From Synechococcales cyanobacterium S06 (GTDB lineage: Bacteria; Cyanobacteriota; Cyanobacteriia; Cyanobacteriales; JAABRE01), in NCBI GenBank assembly GCA_011391125.1, contig JAABRE010000024.1:1-59165 (forward strand): DNA of 59,165 nt, in the 5' to 3' direction. Every line of letters begins with the position of its first letter. Positions within the stretch are counted from its first letter, which is position 1. Below are positions 1 through 48,462 of the stretch, piece after piece. Both the position numbers and the translations under genes were made by a program. A model generated the notes under the pieces. It worked only from the letters and a program-made list of their open reading frames with translations. It ran no database searches and was not told the DNA's origin.

Positions 1-1
1 T

Positions 2-1522
2 CAAGAATTAAAACGCATTGAACAAATTTTGCTCGACAAAATAAGCGAGAATAAATCACAAATATTAATGAGTTTTGTCACCCCAAATCAGTTTTTTGGT
101 ATGGACATTAATCCCTTTGCTGTGGAATTGGCCAAGGTAACTTTAATGATTGCTAGAAAAGTGGCGATCGACAGGTACAATTTAACGGAGTCTCCCTTAC
201 CTTTAGACAGTTTAGATAATAATATTATCTGTCAAGATGCACTTTTTTCAGATTGGATTAAAGCTGATGCAATTATCGGTAATCCTCCCTTTTTAGGAGG
301 TCATAGAATTAGATTAGAAGTAGGAGATCAGTATGCTGATCAAATCTTTAATAAATTTACTGATGTTAACAATAAAGTAGATTTTTGTACTTATTGGTTT
401 AGATTGGCCCATGATAATATTAACGACAAAGGTAGAGTTGGCTTAGTTGGTACAAATTCCATTAGTCAAGGATTATCAAGAACAGCATCTTTAGATTATG
501 TTACTAATAATAATGGCTATATTCATGACGCAATTTCTAGCCAAAAATGGTCAGGACAAGCAGCCGTTCATGTTAGTATTGTTAACTGGATAAAAGAAAA
601 ACCCACTGCTTATTTTTTGGATAATAAAGAGGTAAATTCTATTAATTCTTCCTTGACTTCTTTAACAGATGTTTCCCAAGCTAAAAAGATAAAAGTTAAC
701 GCCAATCTTTGTTTTAAAGGAATTGAACCCACGGGAAAAGGTTTTATTATCACAGAAGTTCAAGCTAAAAAATGGTTAGATCAAGATAGTAAAAACCAAG
801 ACATTATTAAACCCTTTTTAGGAGCAAATGATCTCGCAAAAAACCCTTTAGGAAAACCAGAAAGATGGCTTATTGATTTTAATACCATGAGTTTAGAAGA
901 AGCAAGTAATTATCAATTACCTTTTCAATATATTAAGGAAAATGTGAAACCAGAAAGGGAGAAAAATCGCTCTGAAAAATTAAGGGATTATTGGTGGAAA
1001 TTAGCAGCAAATGCGAGGACAATGAGGGGAAAAATTGCCGAATCTTCTTTTTATTTTGCCATTCCTCGACTTTCTAAATGGTTTATCTTTTTACCCTGTG
1101 AAAAAACTTGGCTACCCGGTGATTCTACCGTAGTTGTCATATCTGATGATTTTTATATATTAGGATTGTTAACCTCAAATATTCATCGTATTTGGATTAA
1201 ATCCCAAAGTTCAACTTTAGAAGATCGAATCAGATATACTCATACCAGCTGTTTTGAAACCTTCCCCTTTCCAGAAAATCCAAATCAAAAATTAATTGAA
1301 AAAATAAGGGAAACCATGGTAAATTTACATGAATATCGCAGTGAACAAATGTTAGCTAAAAAGTGGGGAATCACTCAGTTATATAACCAGTTTTTCCATG
1401 AACCAAGTAGCAATTTAGCTAAATTACATCGGTCATTAGATAAATTAGTAATGCAAATTTATGGTTTTCAAGAAAGTGATGATATATTAGCGAAACTGTT
1501 AGAAATGAACTTAGGTTTGTAG
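2..1522 (+). CDS. MmeI-like adenine-specific DNA methyltransferase, 5' truncated by window
   Basis: The reading frame is open from base 2, so the true start lies left of the window; the ATG at 29 is internal. The sequence before it matches the inside of the next gene. The product would transfer a methyl group from AdoMet to adenine N6. Visible parts are the FGMDINPFAVELAK stretch, motif IV NPPF with flanking GGHR, the SISQGLSRTASLD block, and the target-recognition and C-terminal region ending in a CFETFPFP motif, all typical of the MmeI methyltransferase family. Motif I is outside the window. The catalytic part is almost identical to the next gene, while the recognition region (bases about 840-1080) differs clearly. 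It is the first member of a tandem array. Confidence 0.85.
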   Translation, partial: QELKRIEQILLDKISENKSQILMSFVTPNQFFGMDINPFAVELAKVTLMIARKVAIDRYNLTESPLPLDSLDNNIICQDALFSDWIKADAIIGNPPFLGGHRIRLEVGDQYADQIFNKFTDVNNKVDFCTYWFRLAHDNINDKGRVGLVGTNSISQGLSRTASLDYVTNNNGYIHDAISSQKWSGQAAVHVSIVNWIKEKPTAYFLDNKEVNSINSSLTSLTDVSQAKKIKVNANLCFKGIEPTGKGFIITEVQAKKWLDQDSKNQDIIKPFLGANDLAKNPLGKPERWLIDFNTMSLEEASNYQLPFQYIKENVKPEREKNRSEKLRDYWWKLAANARTMRGKIAESSFYFAIPRLSKWFIFLPCEKTWLPGDSTVVVISDDFYILGLLTSNIHRIWIKSQSSTLEDRIRYTHTSCFETFPFPENPNQKLIEKIRETMVNLHEYRSEQMLAKKWGITQLYNQFFHEPSSNLAKLHRSLDKLVMQIYGFQESDDILAKLLEMNLGL

Positions 1523-1544
1523 TTGCGCTTTAGCGCTATCTTAT

Positions 1545-1572
1545 GTAGGGGTGAACGGCCGTTCACCCCTAC
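1545..1572. repeat. 28-bp perfect palindrome, copy 1
   Basis: The left arm GTAGGGGTGAACGG is followed directly by its reverse complement. Copies occur at 3803-3830 (one mismatch) and 35815-35842 (perfect), with a degenerate relative near 30793. It lies between the first two methyltransferase genes. It could form a cruciform or an RNA hairpin. Confidence 0.9.
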
Positions 1573-1591
1573 ACCTAACAAGCAACTTATT

Positions 1592-3715
1592 ATGTCAACA
1601 AACAAGGAATTATTAATCACCAAAAAAGCGGCCGAACATCTTGGCTTATTATTTCAGACATTAAAAGAAAGGATAAGCAATATGTCAAGTTGTCAAAAAT
1701 TTGTCTTACAATGTATGTTAATTTTCTGGTATGAAAACCGAGGTTTTTTACCAGCTAAACTGTTTATTAACAGTATTAATCAAGCTTTAATTACTGGTAA
1801 TGATGCTGAGATTTTTAGTAATTTATCTCAGCAATTAAATAAGTTACAAATTAAGGGTTTCTTGGCGATAATTTCTCCTTTTAATTTAACTATTTCTGAG
1901 TTACAACTATTAAAAATATGCTCTGATTTTGACTGGAATAATATTAATTTTACTATTTTTGGTAATATTTTTGAACAGGCGATCGCCTCTAAAAAACGTC
2001 ATCAATATGGAATTCATTTTACTACTGAAGCGGATATTCTGAAAATTGTTCGGCCAACCATTAGTAAATATTGGGAAGCAAAGATAGAATCAGCAAATAC
2101 TGTTAAAGAATTAAATCAATTACAAGTGGAATTAACTAATTATAAGGTACTTGATCCTGCTTGTGGTAGTGGTAATTTTCTCTATGTGGCCTATCAAGAA
2201 TTAAAACGCATTGAACAAATTTTGCTAGAGAAAATAAGCGAGAATAAATTACAAATTTTGATGAGTTTTGTGACCCCAAATCAGTTTTTTGGGATGGACA
2301 TTAATCCCTTTGCTGTGGAATTGGCCAAGGTAACTTTAATGATAGCAAGAAAAGTGGCGATCGACAGGTACAATTTAACGGAATCTCCCCTACCTTTGGA
2401 CAGTTTAGATAATAATATAATGTGTCAAGATGCACTTTTTTCAGATTGGATTAAAGCTGATGCAATTATCGGAAATCCTCCCTTTTTAGGAGGTCATAGA
2501 ATTAGAACTGAATTAGGAAATGAATATGCCAAAAATGTCTTTACTAAATTTTCAGAGGTTAAAGATAAGGTGGATTTTTGTATTTATTGGTTTAGGTTGG
2601 CCCATGATAATATTAACGACAAAGGTAGGGTTGGTTTAGTAGGAACAAACTCCATTAGTCAAGGATTATCAAGAACAGCATCTTTAGATTATGTTACTAA
2701 TAATAATGGTTATATTCATGAAGCAATTTCTAGCCAAAAATGGTCAGGACAAGCAGCCGTTTTTGTTAGTATTGTTAACTGGACAAAAGAAAAACCCACT
2801 GCTTATTTTTTGGATCATAAACAAGTAAATTTCATAAATTCTTCCTTGACTTCCTTAACAGATGTTTCTCAGGCAAAAAAGTTAAAAGTTAATGCTAATA
2901 TTTGTTTTCTAGGAATAAGTCCTAACGGAAAAGATTTTATTATTACAGAAGATCAAGCTAAAAAATGGTTAGATCAAGATAGTAAAAACCAAGACGTTAT
3001 TAAACCTTTTTTAGGAGCAAATGATCTAGCAAAAAATTATGAAGGAAAACCAAGTCGCTGGATAGTTGATTTTAATAACATGGAGTTAGAACAAGCGAGT
3101 AATTATCAATTACTTTTTCAATATATTAAAGAAAATGTGAAACCAGAAAGGGATAAAAACCGTCGAGAAACAACCAGAATTAATTGGTGGAAATTTGGCG
3201 AAAAACGTCCGGTAATGAGAGCAAAAATTAGCGAATTATCCTCTTATTTTTGTATTCCTCGACATTCTAAATGGTTTATCTTTTTACCTTGTAATAAAAA
3301 TTGGCTACCCGGTGATTCGACAGTCGTGGTAACTTCAGATGACTTTTATATCTTGGGAATTTTAACCTCTAAAATTCACCGTTTATGGATAGAATCACAA
3401 TGTTCAACTTTAGGAGAAACCATCAGATATACCCATAATACCTGTTTTGAAACCTTCCCATTTCCAGAAAATCCAAATCAAAAATTAGTCGAAAAAATAA
3501 GGGAAACCATGGTAAATTTACATGAATATCGCAGTGAACAAATGTTAGCTAAACAATGGGGAATCACTCAGTTATATAACCAGTTTTTCCATGAACCGAC
3601 TAGCAAATTAGCTAAATTACATCGGTCATTAGATAATTTAGTAATGGAAATTTACGGTTTTCAATTCAGTGATGATATTTTAGCGAAACTGTTAGAAATG
3701 AATTTAGGTTTGTAG
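1592..3715 (+). CDS. MmeI-like adenine-specific DNA methyltransferase, complete tandem copy
   Basis: A 707-aa class I N6-adenine methyltransferase of the MmeI-like group. From the ATG at 1592, residues 1-150 are helical, the AdoMet motif I DPACGSGNF lies at about 188-196 and the catalytic NPPF at 295-298. The recognition domain covers roughly 440-600 and the helical tail ends like the first copy. The frame stays open back to a TTG at 1523, but that start falls in the intergenic repeat, so 1592 is preferred. MmeI itself is longer and carries an N-terminal nuclease; no such nuclease is evident here, so this is probably an orphan or split-system methyltransferase. It is very similar to the upstream copy except in the recognition region. 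The target sequence cannot be read from sequence alone. Confidence 0.88.
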   Translation: MSTNKELLITKKAAEHLGLLFQTLKERISNMSSCQKFVLQCMLIFWYENRGFLPAKLFINSINQALITGNDAEIFSNLSQQLNKLQIKGFLAIISPFNLTISELQLLKICSDFDWNNINFTIFGNIFEQAIASKKRHQYGIHFTTEADILKIVRPTISKYWEAKIESANTVKELNQLQVELTNYKVLDPACGSGNFLYVAYQELKRIEQILLEKISENKLQILMSFVTPNQFFGMDINPFAVELAKVTLMIARKVAIDRYNLTESPLPLDSLDNNIMCQDALFSDWIKADAIIGNPPFLGGHRIRTELGNEYAKNVFTKFSEVKDKVDFCIYWFRLAHDNINDKGRVGLVGTNSISQGLSRTASLDYVTNNNGYIHEAISSQKWSGQAAVFVSIVNWTKEKPTAYFLDHKQVNFINSSLTSLTDVSQAKKLKVNANICFLGISPNGKDFIITEDQAKKWLDQDSKNQDVIKPFLGANDLAKNYEGKPSRWIVDFNNMELEQASNYQLLFQYIKENVKPERDKNRRETTRINWWKFGEKRPVMRAKISELSSYFCIPRHSKWFIFLPCNKNWLPGDSTVVVTSDDFYILGILTSKIHRLWIESQCSTLGETIRYTHNTCFETFPFPENPNQKLVEKIRETMVNLHEYRSEQMLAKQWGITQLYNQFFHEPTSKLAKLHRSLDNLVMEIYGFQFSDDILAKLLEMNLGL

Positions 3716-3760: not shown

Positions 3761-3806
3761 TGATGATATATTAGCGAAACTGTTAGAAATTAATTTAGGT
3801 TTGTAG
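3761..3806 (+). pseudogene. 3' remnant of a third methyltransferase copy
   Basis: These 46 bases repeat the last 15 codons and stop (DDILAKLLE-NLGL) of the two upstream methyltransferase genes almost exactly. They are followed by the 28-bp palindrome and an ACACCCAACAAC flank like the one after copy 1. No upstream coding sequence remains. The array therefore once held at least one more copy or arose by unequal exchange. Confidence 0.85.
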
Positions 3807-3830
3807 GAGTGAACGGCCGTTCACCCCTAC
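3803..3830. repeat. 28-bp palindrome, copy 2
   Basis: Same family as 1545-1572 with one mismatch in the left arm (GTAGGAGTGAACGG). It follows the third methyltransferase 3' end. Confidence 0.9.
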
Positions 3831-7807: not shown

Positions 7808-7893
7808 AGGGTGGGCAATTTATTTTAAGAAAATAGTTAAAATGATAAATAATCATAAATTGCCCACCTTCATCAAACAAGGTGGGCAATTTA
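7808..7893. repeat. GGTGGGCAATTT palindromic repeat cluster
   Basis: GGTGGGCAATTT occurs at about 7810 and 7881, with its reverse complement AAATTGCCCACC at 7857-7868, allowing alternative hairpins. The same pair is embedded in the coding sequence at about 17607-17668. Confidence 0.8.
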
Positions 7894-7945
7894 TTGTTAA
7901 ATAATGATGAAGATGATCAATAATTATTAATGGTTCACCCGACAA

Positions 7946-14966: not shown

Positions 14967-17900
14967 TTATTCTTTGTTCATTGAGGTAATAATTTTTAGG
15001 GTTTCCACACTAACTGTAGTCACTTTTTTAAATAAGTCGATTACCGTTTCTTTGTAATCAGAAAAATGATAATTATTAAAATGTTTGGAAATAGTTTCAT
15101 CTTTAATTTTCTTCTCTTTATATTGGTCTAAAATCCACTCTAATGCACTGCGATTTCCTAGTGTATATTCCCAGGCAATTTCGGGTACATTTTCTAAGGT
15201 GGTAATCTCATCAATGATTATTTGACCCTTGGTTTTATCTATTTTAAATTTGGGTTTTGGGGTTGAATGTAGAGACGTTGCATGTAACGTCTCTACAATT
15301 TGCAAAGGGTAAGGTTTAATTGTCTCATAATTTAAGTGTAAATCCATTAATTGTTTACCCCAATTTTTCCACTGATTAAAGTCATCATAAAAAGGAATTC
15401 TTGGGAAATCTCGTTTCAAATTCTGCTCGTATTTTTCCCGATATTTCGGATTATGTAACACAGCATAAATGTAATGAAATATATCAAGTTTAGTTATTTT
15501 CCTCACCCCCAACTTTTCTTCTGTAGGGGGATTAGCCCTCACCCCCAACCCCTCTCCCACAGGGTGAGGGGAGCTAGAATTGTCTGAAAGTCTTCTCCCC
15601 CCTCTCTCTGAGAAAGAGGGGGGTTGGGGGGGTGAGGGTTGATAATAATCCCTAAACTGCTGTAATCCCCAATCGCTTATATTGTCAAGGCGATCTCCAT
15701 TTTCATAAGTATATAAAGGAAGACATTGACAACCTGCTGGTAAACAGTTTAAATCTATAAGATAATTAGATGCTAAAGTATGAAAATCTTTAGGTGAAGA
15801 TAACCCCGGAATTATCATATATTTATTTTGTGGATTATAAATATTAAACCATTGATAAGTCATTCCGTTAAAATGTTTATCAAAATAAAAATACTGCTTA
15901 GTAAATGGCCGATATAAACAGAAAATAATCTGCTCTTGATTAAATTCTTTATTGATTTTTCTCTTTAAATAATTACTTAATTCCCGATCCCATTTTATGT
16001 TATTTTTCTCCTTAAATTGGTCATCTTCTATGGTTTGTTGATAAATATTAATTAAAAACTGCACCTTTTTCGTTAAATTTTCCTCGGAAAAATCATAAAC
16101 CCATTCGTCTCTTTGTGTTTTTAACCCATTTGTGAATAACTTAAAGATTGCTTGATCAGATTTTCCTGACTTAACATTTTTGTCAATTAAAGGTAGTAAT
16201 TCCTCGAAATCATTATCCACTTGATTAATCCAGTCAGCATTTTTGTCAGGGGTAATATGTACAAAAGGAATTTGAGCAAATTTATGACTTGCTAAAAATT
16301 GTAACTTTTCTTGACCACTATTAAAATTATTTAAAGAATTATAAAATATTTGACAGTTTTCCCTCACCTCCAACCCCTCTCCCAGAGGGTGAGGGGAGTC
16401 TGATTTTTTCACGAAAAAAGTAATTGCAACCCCTACCATAATATTAAAAACATTACCAGATTGATCACCTGCGCGAATATTACCACCTAAATCTATCGTA
16501 TAAACATAATCAAATTCCTCCGCAATAACCTTTCTAAAACCATCAAAAGTTAGTGCATCAATAAAGGAATTATTAGTAATAAATGCGATAATTCCGTTAT
16601 TATTTAATCGGTCAGTTGCCCACCGAATAAACCTAGTGTACATATCATACAATACTATTTGATTTTGAGTGCTTCCTTCTTTAACATAAGTATCTTTGAT
16701 ACGTTTATCTATGTTTTGATAACCACGATTAGCATTATTTTGACTGTAATTTTCCTGTTTAGCATTATAGGGAGGATTACCAATAATTACCGAAATTTTA
16801 CGGTCATTTTGATATACCCCCCCTAACCCCCCCTTGAAAGGGGGGGAAGGGGGGGTATTTTCCTTAGTCATGGAGAATAAATCCATTTGTTTGCCACTAA
16901 AAATGGTACTATCCAAAGTATCAACCAAACAGATATTATTAAACTCAAGATATTCTCCCATTTTCTGCTGAAATGTATATTCAATATTTAGGTTAGCAAT
17001 GTAATAGGGTAAAATCGAAACTTCATTGCAATGTATCTCATTTTTATATTTATATTTAAGGTTATTTGTTGGTAAATATTCGATAATTTCTGTGATAAAT
17101 GTACCTGTACCTGTAGCTGGGTCTAATATTTCAACATTCTGATCGCCCAAAAACTTGCCGAAATGTTTAAATAATAAATAATCCGTACTTTCGAGCATGA
17201 ATTTAACAATTTCATTGGGCGTATAAACAAGGCCTAATTTATCAGCAGTCAAAGGATTATAAGCTTTGTAAAATTCTTCATAGACAACTTTGAGAAACTT
17301 TTGTTTTTCATGGTGATTAACAATATTCGCAGCAGTTCTAATAATCACCGAGTAATAATTATTAATAGTTTTAAGAGTATTGCGTTTAATTTCACCGGTA
17401 AAAAAAGTATCCAAAACTCCCCTTAAAGACTTAGAAATATTATTTTCCTGATGAAATTGTCCCTCATTAAAAATGTTAATAAAAATATCCTCAGTTAAAA
17501 TATGTTGAATCATGATTTCCCTAACATCATTAACAGTAATATCAGGATTAATTGACTCTTGACAAAGTGCTAAAAATGTGTTTAATTCTTGTTTAAAATG
17601 TGGAAGGTGGGCAATTTTAACATCCTGAACAGATTGATCATTTTCTTGTCCAGAAATTGCCCACCTAACCAAAGGATTAATTAGATTTCTAAGAGTAGTT
17701 AAAATAGTAGGTAAATCTTGTTTAAAAGAAGAAATTGCTTCCCGAAAGTCCTTAACTTCAGGACGTTGATAATCAAGAAATAAATTAAGTATCTTATCTA
17801 ATTGGTCCGGGATTTGCATAGAAATCCGCAATATTTCCCGACCATTCTGATATAAAACAGCAGTTTGTGAGTCTTCAAATAAGATATTATCGTCAGGATA

Positions 17901-18233
17901 ACCATCGTTATTAAGTTTTGTTGCGATTTCCTGATCTAAATTATCAAACTTCCCTCCTTTTAAAGGGGGGGTAGGGGGGTACATCCACTTAATACCTTCC
18001 CAATAACCCCAATCTAAACGTAAAGCATCCTTAACAATTCCATCTAAGCGAATATTCGTATTTAACTTACTTTTGATAAATAATTCATTGACTAATAAAA
18101 AATCTCGTTTTTGGCAATAATGATTAAGTAACCTTTCAAAAGCAGGCCGAATAGACTGCTCATTATTACTACCACCAAAACGCTTTAAATTATCCAAATC
18201 TTTATAATAATTATTAATCTGAAAAAGTGACAT
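14967..18233 (-). CDS. Type ISP/IIG-like restriction-modification protein (N6-adenine methylase)
   Basis: A 1088-aa protein. The N-terminal 150 residues look like a degenerate PD-(D/E)XK region (RPAFERLL, LDGIVK, WGYWEGIK). Residues of about 250-700 are an N6-adenine methylase with motif I DPATGTGTF and motif IV NPPY, and the C-terminal part resembles the ISP specificity region. No DEAD-box helicase motif is visible. In relatives the nuclease motif normally reads YWEAKD or YWESKD. Here it reads YWEGIK directly followed by a repeat insertion, so cleavage may be lost. At least six in-frame palindromic repeats interrupt the coding sequence. It may be an active methylase with damaged nuclease, or still functional. 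Confidence 0.82.
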   Translation of the reverse strand: MSLFQINNYYKDLDNLKRFGGSNNEQSIRPAFERLLNHYCQKRDFLLVNELFIKSKLNTNIRLDGIVKDALRLDWGYWEGIKWMYPPTPPLKGGKFDNLDQEIATKLNNDGYPDDNILFEDSQTAVLYQNGREILRISMQIPDQLDKILNLFLDYQRPEVKDFREAISSFKQDLPTILTTLRNLINPLVRWAISGQENDQSVQDVKIAHLPHFKQELNTFLALCQESINPDITVNDVREIMIQHILTEDIFINIFNEGQFHQENNISKSLRGVLDTFFTGEIKRNTLKTINNYYSVIIRTAANIVNHHEKQKFLKVVYEEFYKAYNPLTADKLGLVYTPNEIVKFMLESTDYLLFKHFGKFLGDQNVEILDPATGTGTFITEIIEYLPTNNLKYKYKNEIHCNEVSILPYYIANLNIEYTFQQKMGEYLEFNNICLVDTLDSTIFSGKQMDLFSMTKENTPPSPPFKGGLGGVYQNDRKISVIIGNPPYNAKQENYSQNNANRGYQNIDKRIKDTYVKEGSTQNQIVLYDMYTRFIRWATDRLNNNGIIAFITNNSFIDALTFDGFRKVIAEEFDYVYTIDLGGNIRAGDQSGNVFNIMVGVAITFFVKKSDSPHPLGEGLEVRENCQIFYNSLNNFNSGQEKLQFLASHKFAQIPFVHITPDKNADWINQVDNDFEELLPLIDKNVKSGKSDQAIFKLFTNGLKTQRDEWVYDFSEENLTKKVQFLINIYQQTIEDDQFKEKNNIKWDRELSNYLKRKINKEFNQEQIIFCLYRPFTKQYFYFDKHFNGMTYQWFNIYNPQNKYMIIPGLSSPKDFHTLASNYLIDLNCLPAGCQCLPLYTYENGDRLDNISDWGLQQFRDYYQPSPPQPPSFSERGGRRLSDNSSSPHPVGEGLGVRANPPTEEKLGVRKITKLDIFHYIYAVLHNPKYREKYEQNLKRDFPRIPFYDDFNQWKNWGKQLMDLHLNYETIKPYPLQIVETLHATSLHSTPKPKFKIDKTKGQIIIDEITTLENVPEIAWEYTLGNRSALEWILDQYKEKKIKDETISKHFNNYHFSDYKETVIDLFKKVTTVSVETLKIITSMNKE
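15268..15297. repeat. Palindromic repeat inside coding sequence
   Basis: GTAGAGACGTT pairs with AACGTCTCTAC around a 6-base loop. It is translated in frame in the restriction-modification protein as part of ETLHATSLHSTPK. Confidence 0.85.
15502..15641. repeat. Compound C/G-rich repeat insertion inside coding sequence
   Basis: Three or more CCCTCACCCCCAACCCCTCTCCC-like blocks and their complements are stacked here. They add a low-complexity stretch rich in Pro, Gly and Arg (PPSFSERGG, PHPVGEGLGVR) to the restriction-modification protein without shifting the frame. Confidence 0.85.
16360..16401. repeat. C/G-rich palindromic insertion inside coding sequence
   Basis: CCCTCACC...CCCTCTCCC and GGGTGAGGGG arms form a hairpin. 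Translated as PHPLGEGLEVREN in the restriction-modification protein. Confidence 0.8.
16812..16858. repeat. C/G-rich palindromic insertion inside coding sequence
   Basis: Long runs of C then G (CCCCCCTAACCC and GGGGGGAAGGG) pair as a hairpin. Translated as TPPSPPFKGGLGGVYQ immediately before methylase motif IV. Confidence 0.85.
17607..17668. repeat. GGTGGGCAATTT inverted pair inside coding sequence
   Basis: AGGTGGGCAATTT and AAATTGCCCACCT flank about 36 bases. This is the same pair as in the intergenic repeat at 7808-7893. It is in frame within the restriction-modification gene. Confidence 0.75.
17946..17985. repeat. C/G-rich palindromic insertion next to the nuclease motif
   Basis: CCCTCCTTTTAAAGGGGGGG hairpin, translated as MYPPTPPLKGGKF. 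It sits directly after the degenerate nuclease motif EGIK. Confidence 0.8.
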
Positions 18234-18554: not shown

Positions 18555-18597
18555 CTTTGCGTCCAAACTTTGCGCCTTTGCGCCTTTGCGTGAGATA
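18555..18597 (+). repeat. CTTTGCG short tandem repeat
   Basis: ACTTTGCG, GCGCCTTTGCGCC and TTTGCGTGAGA units in direct order. Relatives occur at 14936-14961 (reverse), 46459, 46523, 48427 and 51688. This family often sits just after stop codons. Confidence 0.8.
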
Positions 18598-21505: not shown

Positions 21506-21877
21506 TTATATTATAGCACTTGCCAAATTTATGAGGACTCTTTTCCCCCTCTCCCTTTGGGATGAGGGGGGTAGGGGGGTGAGGGGTTGTATCTCATTTA
21601 ATCTGAAAATGCTATAGTATCTAACAAACAGTTCATCTATATCATCCTCTTGATAAATTCCTTCTCTACTAACCGCAAAATCTGACAAAAGTATAGTAGA
21701 AGAATGATTCTCGTCCCAATTTTGGATCGATTTTAAGCGATCTTTGGCCGTCATTTCTGATGGATTAAGCTGATTTTGTCTAGGTAAATTCCCTAATTTT
21801 TGTTCCAAAAGGTTTCTTTCTGTCGGATTAAGGGAATCGATAATAGTAATTAGTGAATCTATTAATTTAGTATTCAT
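21506..21877 (-). CDS. Antitoxin-like protein with C-terminus supplied by a MITE
   Basis: A 123-aa ORF. The first about 88 residues resemble small cyanobacterial antitoxins paired with PIN toxins (N-terminal helical IDSLITIIDSLNPTERNLLEQ, then a SREGIYQED motif). From codon 89 on the frame runs into the 105-bp MITE (21512-21616), which contributes a Pro/Ser/Arg-rich tail (PLTPLPPSSQRERGKR) and the stop. The adjoining toxin gene is broken. The start ATG has an AGGAGAAATAAGGA leader. Whether it is stable or functional is unknown. Confidence 0.65.
   Translation of the reverse strand: MNTKLIDSLITIIDSLNPTERNLLEQKLGNLPRQNQLNPSEMTAKDRLKSIQNWDENHSSTILLSDFAVSREGIYQEDDIDELFVRYYSIFRLNEIQPLTPLPPSSQRERGKRVLINLASAII
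21512..21616. mobile_element. 105-bp MITE, copy 1
   Basis: Ends TATAGCA and TGCTATA are inverted. The interior is a C/G-rich hairpin (CCCCCTCTCCC against GGGATGAGGGG). It is identical over 105 bases to 45734-45838 and related to 28657-28761 and 43309-43599. No coding capacity of its own. Confidence 0.9.
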
Positions 21878-45375: not shown

Positions 45376-45733
45376 AATCTTCTCAATAAAAATTTAAAAT
45401 TTACGGAAATCAAAGCAAAAATAAAATAGTAATTATAATTAATAACTATTAGTTAATTTCTCCTACTTATCTATTCACTATTTGAAAAATATTATATAAC
45501 AATACTCAAAAAGTAGTTAATTTTTTAAACTCGTTTAATTGTTAATTAACGCCTACTTTTTCTCAATTTAATTGATCAACAAACTAGAAAAATAGAAAAG
45601 TAAGTTGATCGAAAACCATTTTTTGAAAAACCTGATTAGATCAGGAAGGAAAGCCCTTAGCATTAAGATAGAAAAACCTAAATCAAGTGTACAATAAAAG
45701 TGTAATAGAAATGTCTAATTGATATAGACTTAC
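45376..45733. other. Intergenic region, no gene seen
   Basis: A+T-rich stretch upstream of the lipoprotein gene, holding its promoter. The only notable structure is a short CCTGAT-TAG-ATCAGG hairpin near 45630. Confidence 0.5.
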
Positions 45734-45838
45734 TATAGCACTTGCCAAATTTATGAGGACTCTTTTCCCCCTCTCCCTTTGGGATGAGGGGGGTAGGGGG
45801 GTGAGGGGTTGTATCTCATTTAATCTGAAAATGCTATA
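45734..45838. mobile_element. 105-bp MITE, copy 2
   Basis: Identical over 105 bases to 21512-21616, including the TATAGCACTTGCC and AAATGCTATA ends. The identity implies recent mobility or gene conversion. Confidence 0.92.
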
Positions 45839-46402: not shown

Positions 46403-46431
46403 GCTTTTTTTCTTTGCGTACTCAAAAATCA

Positions 46432-46588
46432 AAGACTAAGAAGCCAACCGATCATCCCCTTTGCGCCTTAGCGTCTTTGCGTGAGAAAACAACCCAAGAC
46501 TAAGAGGCCAACCGACTATCCCCTTTGCGCCTTAGCGTCTTTGCGTGAGAAAACAACTCAAGACTAAGAGGCCAACCGACCATCCCCT
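46432..46588. repeat. 64-bp tandem repeat, two full units and a partial
   Basis: Units start at 46432, 46496 and 46560 with AAGACTAAGARGCCAACCGA, followed by CCCCTTTGCGCCTTAGCG and TCTTTGCGTGAGAAAACAAC. A separate relative lies at 48403-48462. There are no unique spacers, so this is not CRISPR. Confidence 0.9.
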
Positions 46589-48312: not shown

Positions 48313-48402
48313 AATTCTTTTAAGTAAAAATTCCTATTCTGTTTTCTGCTATTTTATCAGAAGTGTAAATAAATGTAACGAAAAATTAAAAAAAAATAAC
48401 AA

Positions 48403-48462
48403 GATTATGAGACCAACCGACAACCCCCTTTGCGTCTTTGGGTCTTTGCGTGAGAAAATAAA
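48403..48462 (+). repeat. Dispersed relative of the 64-bp repeat
   Basis: AAGATTATGAGACCAACCGAC and TTTGCGTCTTTGGGTC / TTTGCGTGAGAAAAT match the unit at 46432-46588 imperfectly. It lies just upstream of aroC. Confidence 0.8.

What the first reader, a model, noticed from the sequence alone, without database searches (positions are those of the whole stretch)
14967..18233. Restriction-modification gene colonised by in-frame palindromic repeats
At least six repeat insertions of three types occur in one ORF without breaking it, one directly after the nuclease motif (YWEGIK) and one before methylase motif IV. It recalls Rickettsia palindromic elements in genes, but concentrated in a defence gene.
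Basis: partly seen in the sequence, partly recalled or inferred. Interest (0 to 1): 0.65.

Follow-up and report, generated by a model that had tools for sequence, protein, structure and literature searches.

The report
Palindromic repeats colonising a restriction-enzyme family
A cyanobacterial defence gene carries six short mobile-DNA inserts that it reads as part of its protein, and in related bacteria inserts of the same kind frame a small DNA-cutting domain lodged inside DNA-defence genes, which hints at a little-noticed parasite of the defence machinery.

Summary
The ORF at 14967-18233 (minus strand, 1088 aa) is a DrdV-like single-chain restriction-modification (RM) enzyme with six in-frame inserts from five repeat families, in low-confidence loops or linkers of the predicted structure. 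It is not one odd gene. The genome holds about 14 mosaic paralogues plus remnants, and at four of the six sites different copies carry different repeat families. Several other groups of RM genes are colonised too: 26 of 35 exact copies of repeat A and 7 of 7 of repeat B sit in RM genes. Backbones stay under purifying selection. One insert splits the E-x-K nuclease motif found in 75 of 75 aligned homologues, so this copy may not cleave, although its nuclease region shows no relaxed constraint. The most novel lead is DUF559, a nuclease family related to EDxHD homing endonucleases. In other cyanobacteria it sits in frame, mostly between GC-rich palindromic repeats, inside large ORFs; all 23 listed cases are in DNA-modification or defence genes (one assigned weakly). 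At the window's fifth site, homologues carry repeat-DUF559-repeat where the window gene has only repeats. The repeats may therefore be homing-cassette scars or passengers. That is inferred, not shown.

The parts
14967..18233 (-). DrdV-like (Type IIL/ISP-related) single-chain RM enzyme, 1088 aa
   Evidence: Pfam Type_ISP_C, ISP_coupler, N6_Mtase, Eco57I; PADLOC Type IIG; DrdV 7lo5 is the closest solved structure by sequence and by fold
17682..18233 (-). nuclease region, aa 1-184, with RLDG (aa 62-65) and split motif YWEGIK (aa 77-82)
   Evidence: alignment with paralogues and homologues
17946..17996 (-). S1 insert (family B), aa 80-96, splits E-x-K
   Evidence: nine other aligned paralogues read YWEAK/YWESK; E-x-K in 75 of 75 homologues with the residue aligned
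17598..17678 (-). S2 insert (family E, GGTGGGCAATTT...AAATTGCCCACC), aa 186-212, between nuclease and coupler
   Evidence: other families at this site in other paralogues
16812..16853 (-). S3 insert (family B), aa 461-474, just before motif IV
   Evidence: absent from 10 of 14 aligned paralogues
16356..16403 (-). S4 insert (family A), aa 611-626, between methylase and specificity regions
   Evidence: family B here in C88 and C154, none in C118 and C136
15498..15641 (-). S5 composite insert (A2 + A units), aa 865-912
   Evidence: matches flanks of DUF559 cassettes at the same site in other genomes
15258..15302 (-). S6 insert (family C palindrome at 15268-15297), aa 978-992
   Evidence: families D and B at this site in paralogues
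16404..17294 (-). N6-adenine methyltransferase region; DPATGTGTF (17097-17123) and NPPY (16767-16778) intact
   Evidence: Pfam N6_Mtase and Eco57I hits within aa 314-583, extended to S4 by alignment; motifs placed
15033..16151 (-). Type ISP C-terminal specificity region (Pfam aa 695-1067)
   Evidence: aa 695-834 is the most variable part among paralogues

Best explanation
The ORF is one copy of an expanded, recombining family of DrdV-like single-chain RM genes in a cyanobacterium. Several unrelated families of mobile palindromic repeats have inserted, or been copied, in frame into six flexible linkers and loops, and are kept because the protein tolerates them there. Shown: the inserts, their repeat identity, their rough placement in the model, the paralogues, the change of insert type at fixed sites, the mosaic backbones and the purifying selection. 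Inferred: that the protein still methylates, that the S1 insert lowers or abolishes cleavage, that exchange between paralogues spreads the inserts, and that the GC-rich families A and B are delivered by, or left behind from, DUF559 nuclease cassettes.
For: Shared sites across 14 aligned paralogues, with different families at S2 (E, C, A2A and other units), S4 (A, B or none), S5 (A2A or B) and S6 (C, D or B), and B or nothing at S3. C90 and C66 are about 95% identical on both sides of S2, yet their S2 inserts differ completely. Backbone dN/dS is 0.07-0.39 over 12 pairs. S1, S3, S4 and S5 fall in unstructured segments with pLDDT below 50. Mosaic copies: C113 and C136 share the specificity core at 96% while S2-S3 is 75%; C98 and C131 are 88-95% identical from S2 on except for a specificity core at 53%. 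In-frame repeats also occur in MmeI-like, ISP, Eco57I-type and N6_N4 methylase genes.
Against: Mere tolerance does not explain why inserts are so concentrated in DNA-modification genes: 26 of 35 exact A and 7 of 7 exact B copies, against 8 of 38 C and 3 of 12 D. Raw counts are inflated by gene duplication; collapsed by hand to gene group and site they are 11 of 20 (A+B) against 7 of 46 (C+D), Fisher p = 0.002. Housekeeping genes (CobN, GcvP) also carry an insert, so the restriction to RM genes is not absolute. The test for exchange centred on inserts was inconclusive. Low pLDDT at inserts is partly expected, because the aligned homologues lack them.
Confidence: 0.6

Rival explanations
1. Homing scars: families A and B are the ends of cassettes built as repeat-DUF559-repeat that home into DNA-modification genes. 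Loss of DUF559 between the flanking repeats leaves in-frame repeats, as at S3-S5 of the window gene.
For: The DUF559 profile matches endonuclease-like 3hrl (E 1.7e-27) and the mobile-intron protein 3r3p (E 0.004). All 23 listed DUF559 hits in frames of 360 aa or more lie in DNA-modification or defence genes, 22 by profile and one (L270) only by 66% identity over 50 aa to an RM enzyme. The window S5 insert aligns over nearly its full length with the 5' flank of DUF559 cassettes at the same site in L254 (106/144) and L030 (100/142), scores 126 and 106 against shuffled maxima of 26 and 25. Small DUF559 ORFs have GC-rich flank hairpins in 20 of 24 against 25 of 138 other small ORFs, and shared flank 12-mers in 13 of 24 against 9 of 138. 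Two supported DUF559 clades each span several host gene families.
Against: The own genome has only one DUF559. Families C, D, E and F have no shown link to DUF559. A strong direct repeat across the cassette is seen in 8 of 23 cases, 4 are mainly inverted, 7 are weaker, and the three Type III-like methylase cases and L267 show little or none. The 23 are not independent: several are near-copies from one family. No target cleavage was tested.
Confidence: 0.3
2. The repeats serve as recombination handles that shuffle specificity regions among the paralogues and are selected for that.
For: S4 and S5 flank the most variable region, and specificity regions have clearly been exchanged.
Against: S1, S2, S3 and S6 do not flank it. 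Breakpoints were not shown to fall in the repeats, and conserved backbone near the sites would serve equally well.
Confidence: 0.12
3. The gene is a decaying copy filled with junk repeats.
For: S1 splits E-x-K; C113 and C88 have a TGA inside the S3 insert; C108 and C154 close early and C94, C103 and C104 hold only remnants.
Against: The window frame is intact, methylase motifs are kept, dN/dS is well below 1, and even the nuclease region of C85/C154 has dN/dS 0.17.
Confidence: 0.12

Closest known systems
DrdV (PDB 7lo5/7lvv; that it is Type IIL is recalled); LlaBIII and LlaGI (Type ISP)
   Same: Full-length relation to DrdV by sequence (E 1.8e-267) and top fold match (40% identity); the coupler, methylase and specificity regions match LlaBIII and LlaGI
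   Different: The printed DrdV alignment has gaps at S1-S5; the window protein has no helicase domain as LlaBIII/LlaGI have (recalled); its E-x-K is split. TM-scores are only 0.42-0.46, so the domain arrangement of the model is not reliable
Rickettsia palindromic elements (RPE) and intragenic GTAG/CGTC REPs
   Same: Short palindromes translated in frame; one survey reports intragenic REPs, many in DNA replication and repair genes (PMC3733652, passages), and a review describes in-frame RPEs (PMC10969869, passages)
   Different: Several unrelated families share the same sites of one RM family; RM genes are not named among the hosts in the passages I saw
EDxHD homing endonucleases such as I-Bth0305I, and DUF559 in inteins
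   Same: The DUF559 profile matches 3r3p; a paper places a DUF559 gene in the EDxHD family in its section on inteins (PMC9403480, passages)
   Different: In most cases here the DUF559 is read as part of the host frame with no intein recognised, and is mostly framed by palindromic repeats
Specificity exchange in Type IIG enzymes
   Same: Specificity regions exchanged between backbones; domain exchange is named for Type IIG in PMC4081073 (passages)
   Different: Here among about 14 single-chain paralogues in one genome, with repeats near some boundaries

Membership tests
DrdV-like single-chain RM enzyme | methylase motifs I and IV, coupler and Type ISP specificity region in one chain | tested here: met
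DrdV-like single-chain RM enzyme | intact D...E-x-K nuclease motif | tested here: not met
   window and C154 read E-G/S-I-K; 75 of 75 homologues with the residue aligned read E-x-K; D64 is kept in 75 of 75
DrdV-like single-chain RM enzyme | methylation and cleavage activity | not testable with these tools
   needs an assay
In-frame palindromic element (RPE/REP type) | copies repeated elsewhere in the genome and read without a frameshift | tested here: met
In-frame palindromic element (RPE/REP type) | GTAG tag with a cognate RAYT transposase (families C and D only) | tested here: inconclusive
   C and D start with GTAG; one of 7 Y1 transposase loci (L276) has a D-like palindrome nearby
DUF559 (EDxHD-like) homing cassette | nuclease domain present | tested here: not met
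   no DUF559 hit in the window protein; the domain is seen in related loci only
DUF559 (EDxHD-like) homing cassette | same insertion site with and without the nuclease | tested here: met
   S5 holds DUF559 in L030, L252, L254, L255, L258, L268 and L269; repeats only in the window gene
DUF559 (EDxHD-like) homing cassette | cleavage of the insert-free target | not testable with these tools
   needs an assay

The most novel reading that the evidence does not exclude
Cyanobacteria carry a class of homing-like mobile elements, palindromic repeat - DUF559 nuclease - palindromic repeat, that invade DNA-modification and defence genes in frame without a splicing domain and are translated as part of the host enzyme. 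The repeat-only inserts in the window's RM family are their scars or non-autonomous forms; they spread among the paralogues and remodel, or at S1 disable, the restriction function.
Probability: 0.38. Interest if true: 0.85.

Novelty: new variant of a known kind. Interest (0 to 1): 0.66.

Why it matters
If the inserts are tolerated passengers, the family is a natural experiment in how much foreign peptide a large DNA enzyme can carry, with matched copies that differ by insert. If the DUF559 reading holds, defence genes have a dedicated in-frame parasite, and the question of how short palindromes enter coding sequence gets a testable enzyme. The S1 insert also gives a concrete case in which a mobile repeat may turn a restriction enzyme into a methylase only.

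Tried and rejected
A test for exchange centred on the inserts (flank identity near and far from each site, by insert family) gave no clear signal except a weak one at S2, where misalignment may contribute. The idea that the S1 insert relaxed selection on the nuclease region was not supported: C85/C154 dN/dS is 0.17 there. The idea that repeat units are unusually open in all six frames was not supported: 1 to 4 of 6 frames are open, against a mean of 2.8 in random 40-nt stretches. Y1 transposase loci explained little: one of seven has a D-like palindrome.

Ten paper searches, covering open-licence papers only, showed no description of repeat-framed DUF559 in RM genes in the titles and abstract starts that I saw; one search listed 20 of 420 papers. 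One paper does place DUF559 in the EDxHD homing family. I read passages of four papers and no whole text.

Searches failed on wrong coordinates and were repeated. Rows dropped: 3 of 80 named homologues were too short to align, and 2 of the 77 aligned lack the E-x-K column; six short paralogue fragments were left out of the paralogue alignment; the DUF559 tree holds 23 embedded domains but only 13 of 26 free-standing ones, because my motif filter missed the rest. All 23 DUF559 hits listed with frames of 360 aa or more were examined; further hits were not listed. All exact A, B, C and D copies were placed; copies with mismatches were read only in part. On checking, I lowered the paralogue count from about 16 to about 14 and raised the odds of the decay rival from 0.10 to 0.12, because several fragments are truncated copies or remnants rather than halves cut at contig ends.
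Full report
What is there. The ORF at 14967-18233 on the minus strand encodes 1088 aa without a stop. Pfam finds the ISP coupler, N6 methylase, Eco57I and Type ISP specificity families, and PADLOC calls it Type IIG. The nearest solved protein is DrdV, 7lo5/7lvv, by sequence (E 1.8e-267) and by fold (TM-score 0.42-0.46, so the overall arrangement of the model is not reliable). LlaBIII and LlaGI match the coupler, methylase and specificity parts. That DrdV is a Type IIL enzyme is recalled.

The inserts. Against paralogues the ORF has six in-frame inserts: S1 aa 80-96, S2 186-212, S3 461-474, S4 611-626, S5 865-912 and S6 978-992. They belong to five repeat families, named here B (S1, S3), E (S2), A (S4, S5), A2 (S5) and C (S6). 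C has 69 copies in the genome at up to 3 mismatches, A 108 strand matches, the GTAG-starting family D 90 copies and B 50 strand matches at up to 2 mismatches; the reversed controls gave 0 in all four. In 361 kb of sampled sequence 12 repeat units lie in ORFs, 7 of these in this gene, and 19 lie outside; the 21 pieces of the RM family read here (the distant C29 copy included) hold 69 units in 45.3 kb.

A family, not a gene. The genome holds nine near-complete copies (C85, C154, C90, C66, C98, C131, C123, C113, C118). Of these C98 and C131 lack the start, C154 closes about 100 codons early and C113 has a TGA. Five N-side (C95, C35, C43, C89, C137) and five C-side fragments (C88, C136, C121, C91, C140) are cut at contig ends, so about 14 copies if the halves pair; C108 is truncated, and C94, C103 and C104 are short remnants. 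The same sites recur, but the repeat differs. At S2 the E element sits in C85, C98, C131 and C113, the C palindrome in C154, C66, C123 and C95, an A2A composite in C108 and C118, and other units in C35 and C90. S3 has B in four of 14 copies and nothing in ten. S4 has A in nine of 13, B in two and none in two. S5 has A2A, except B in C136. S6 has C, D or B. C90 and C66 are about 95% identical around S2 and carry completely different S2 inserts, so inserts turn over faster than backbones.

Selection and structure. Backbone dN/dS is 0.07-0.39 in 12 pairs, inserts and stops left out. In the AlphaFold2 model (mean pLDDT 71.1, pTM 0.50) S1, S3, S4 and S5 fall in unstructured segments with pLDDT below 50; S2 overlaps the last residues of helix 158-194 and includes a short helix, and S6 overlaps strand 978-981. 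Low confidence there is partly expected, since the aligned homologues lack the inserts. S1 is special. All 75 homologues with the residue aligned read E-x-K, and in the 77 aligned homologues no S1 insert was seen, whereas the window and C154 read E-G/S-I-K followed by the insert. Two other copies (C89, C137) have a different S1 insert after an intact E-S-K. I infer reduced cleavage. Against this, the nuclease region of C85/C154 shows no relaxed constraint (dN/dS 0.17). Copies C113 and C88 have a TGA inside the S3 insert.

Mosaic paralogues. C113 and C136 share the specificity core (aa 695-834) at 96.3%, while other segments range from 75% (S2-S3) to 94%. C98 and C131 are 88-95% identical from S2 to the end, except 53% in the specificity core. 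S4 and S5 flank the variable region, but breakpoints were not shown to fall in the repeats, and a test for exchange centred on the inserts was inconclusive.

Other RM genes. In-frame repeats also occur in MmeI-like genes (L083, L095, L133, L289), the C29/C80/C20-like group (L080, L093, L094, L096, L301), ISP pieces (L097, L103, L113), Eco57I-type genes (L084-L086, L106, L114, L297) and an N6_N4 methylase (L296); L080, L094 and L096 are assigned by similarity, not by a Pfam scan. Non-RM hosts with a frame over 300 aa are CobN (L071), GcvP (L119, between its two halves), M23, Calx-beta and related surface proteins (L104, L109, L298; L074 without a Pfam hit) and a CARDB protein (L121); several small ORFs were not classified. 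Of exact copies, 26 of 35 A, 7 of 7 B (two of them bring an in-frame TGA), 8 of 38 C and 3 of 12 D lie in DNA-modification genes. One of the 8 C cases rests on a 168-aa frame without a Pfam hit beside an MmeI specificity frame. Duplication inflates these counts; collapsed by hand to gene group and site they are 11 of 20 (A+B) and 7 of 46 (C+D), p = 0.002. RM genes make up roughly 3.4% of the genome (51 Eco57I hits, some of them pieces of one gene; mean length assumed).

DUF559. The only DUF559 in this genome lies in frame in an MmeI-like enzyme, between B repeats, just before motif IV. A DrdV-like homologue in another family (L030) has a DUF559 between A-type repeats at S5. In 195 genomes of the order, 132 have DUF559. 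All 23 hits listed there in frames of 360 aa or more were read. Hosts: DrdV/ISP 7, MmeI 5, Eco57I-type 5 (L270 only by 66% identity over 50 aa to L084, with no PADLOC hit), Type III-like methylase 3, HmaB 2, HmaA 1. Several are near-copies from one family, so they are not 23 independent events. The window S5 insert aligns with cassette flanks at the same site (L254 106/144, L030 100/142; weaker or partial in L252, L255, L258, L268, L269). Small DUF559 ORFs have flank hairpins in 20 of 24 against 25 of 138 other small ORFs, and shared flank 12-mers in 13 of 24 against 9 of 138. Across the 23 embedded domains a strong direct repeat is seen in 8, 4 are mainly inverted, 7 are weaker, and the three Type III-like cases and L267 show little. 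That the flanks are of the A/B kind in the other host groups is my reading of the translated flanks. The 14 aligned domains keep FRRQ, DF, E-x-D-G and H. The profile matches 3hrl (E 1.7e-27) and the mobile-intron protein 3r3p (E 0.004); that 3r3p is I-Bth0305I is recalled. A paper places a DUF559 gene in the EDxHD family in its intein section (PMC9403480, passages). The tree has two supported DUF559 clades that each span several host groups.

Cross-species view. Among 80 named homologues, 77 of which were aligned, S1 has no insert and S3 none that looks palindromic; S2 has two long inserts; S5 and S6 vary most, including the ESFC-1 copy with A-type repeats on both sides of a DUF559. In unnamed relatives, S2 carries an A2A-like composite in two copies of G022 (L033, L047) and an A-like unit in L030.

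Reading. The best-supported account is tolerated, in-frame colonisation of flexible linkers in a redundant, recombining RM family. The concentration of A and B in RM genes and the DUF559 cassettes suggest that homing-type delivery adds to it. A published precedent for intragenic REPs, many in DNA replication and repair genes, exists (PMC3733652, passages), so the phenomenon is a variant of a known kind; the listings of my searches of open-licence papers showed no account of repeat-framed DUF559 in RM genes.

Noticed in passing
L083:2-2926 and L095:537-3086: Two MmeI-like enzymes of the own genome carry inserts at the same place before motif IV: one with DUF559 between B repeats, the other with four tandem A-type units and no DUF559.
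   Followed up: yes
L263, L265, L266: DUF559 inside Type III-like N6_N4 methylase frames, in a context that looks like an intein (judged from recalled end motifs; no intein profile was tested).
   Followed up: partly
window 1-3715: Two tandem MmeI-like genes, 83% and 95% identical in two matched 300-nt stretches, with D palindromes (1545-1572, 3803-3830) beside them.
   Followed up: no
window 7810-7939: Two E-type elements (GGTGGGCAATTT ends, the second one degenerate) in tandem, the same family as site S2.
   Followed up: no
window 21509-21616 and 45731-45838: A 108-nt stretch repeated at 99% identity 24 kb apart.
   Followed up: no
window 46424-46551, 48393-48456: 64-nt repeats ending in TTTGCGTGAGAA; related 26-nt copies at 18569 and 51688.
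   Followed up: no
G000: 51 Eco57I-family matches in a 4.8-Mb genome (some are pieces of one gene): a heavy load of bifunctional RM enzymes. Borrelia isolates with up to 20 Type IIG systems are in print (PMC4081073, passages).
   Followed up: partly
L141, L148, L149, L150, L158 (Anabaenopsis elenkinii, NZ_CP063311.1): Five loci of the same RM family in one finished chromosome, so paralogue expansion is not unique to this genome.
   Followed up: no
L098, L104, L298, L299, L300: A B-like variant (CCCCCCCTTGAAAGGGGGGA) recurs at the 3' end of small ORFs ending IGNFPPFKGG.
   Followed up: no
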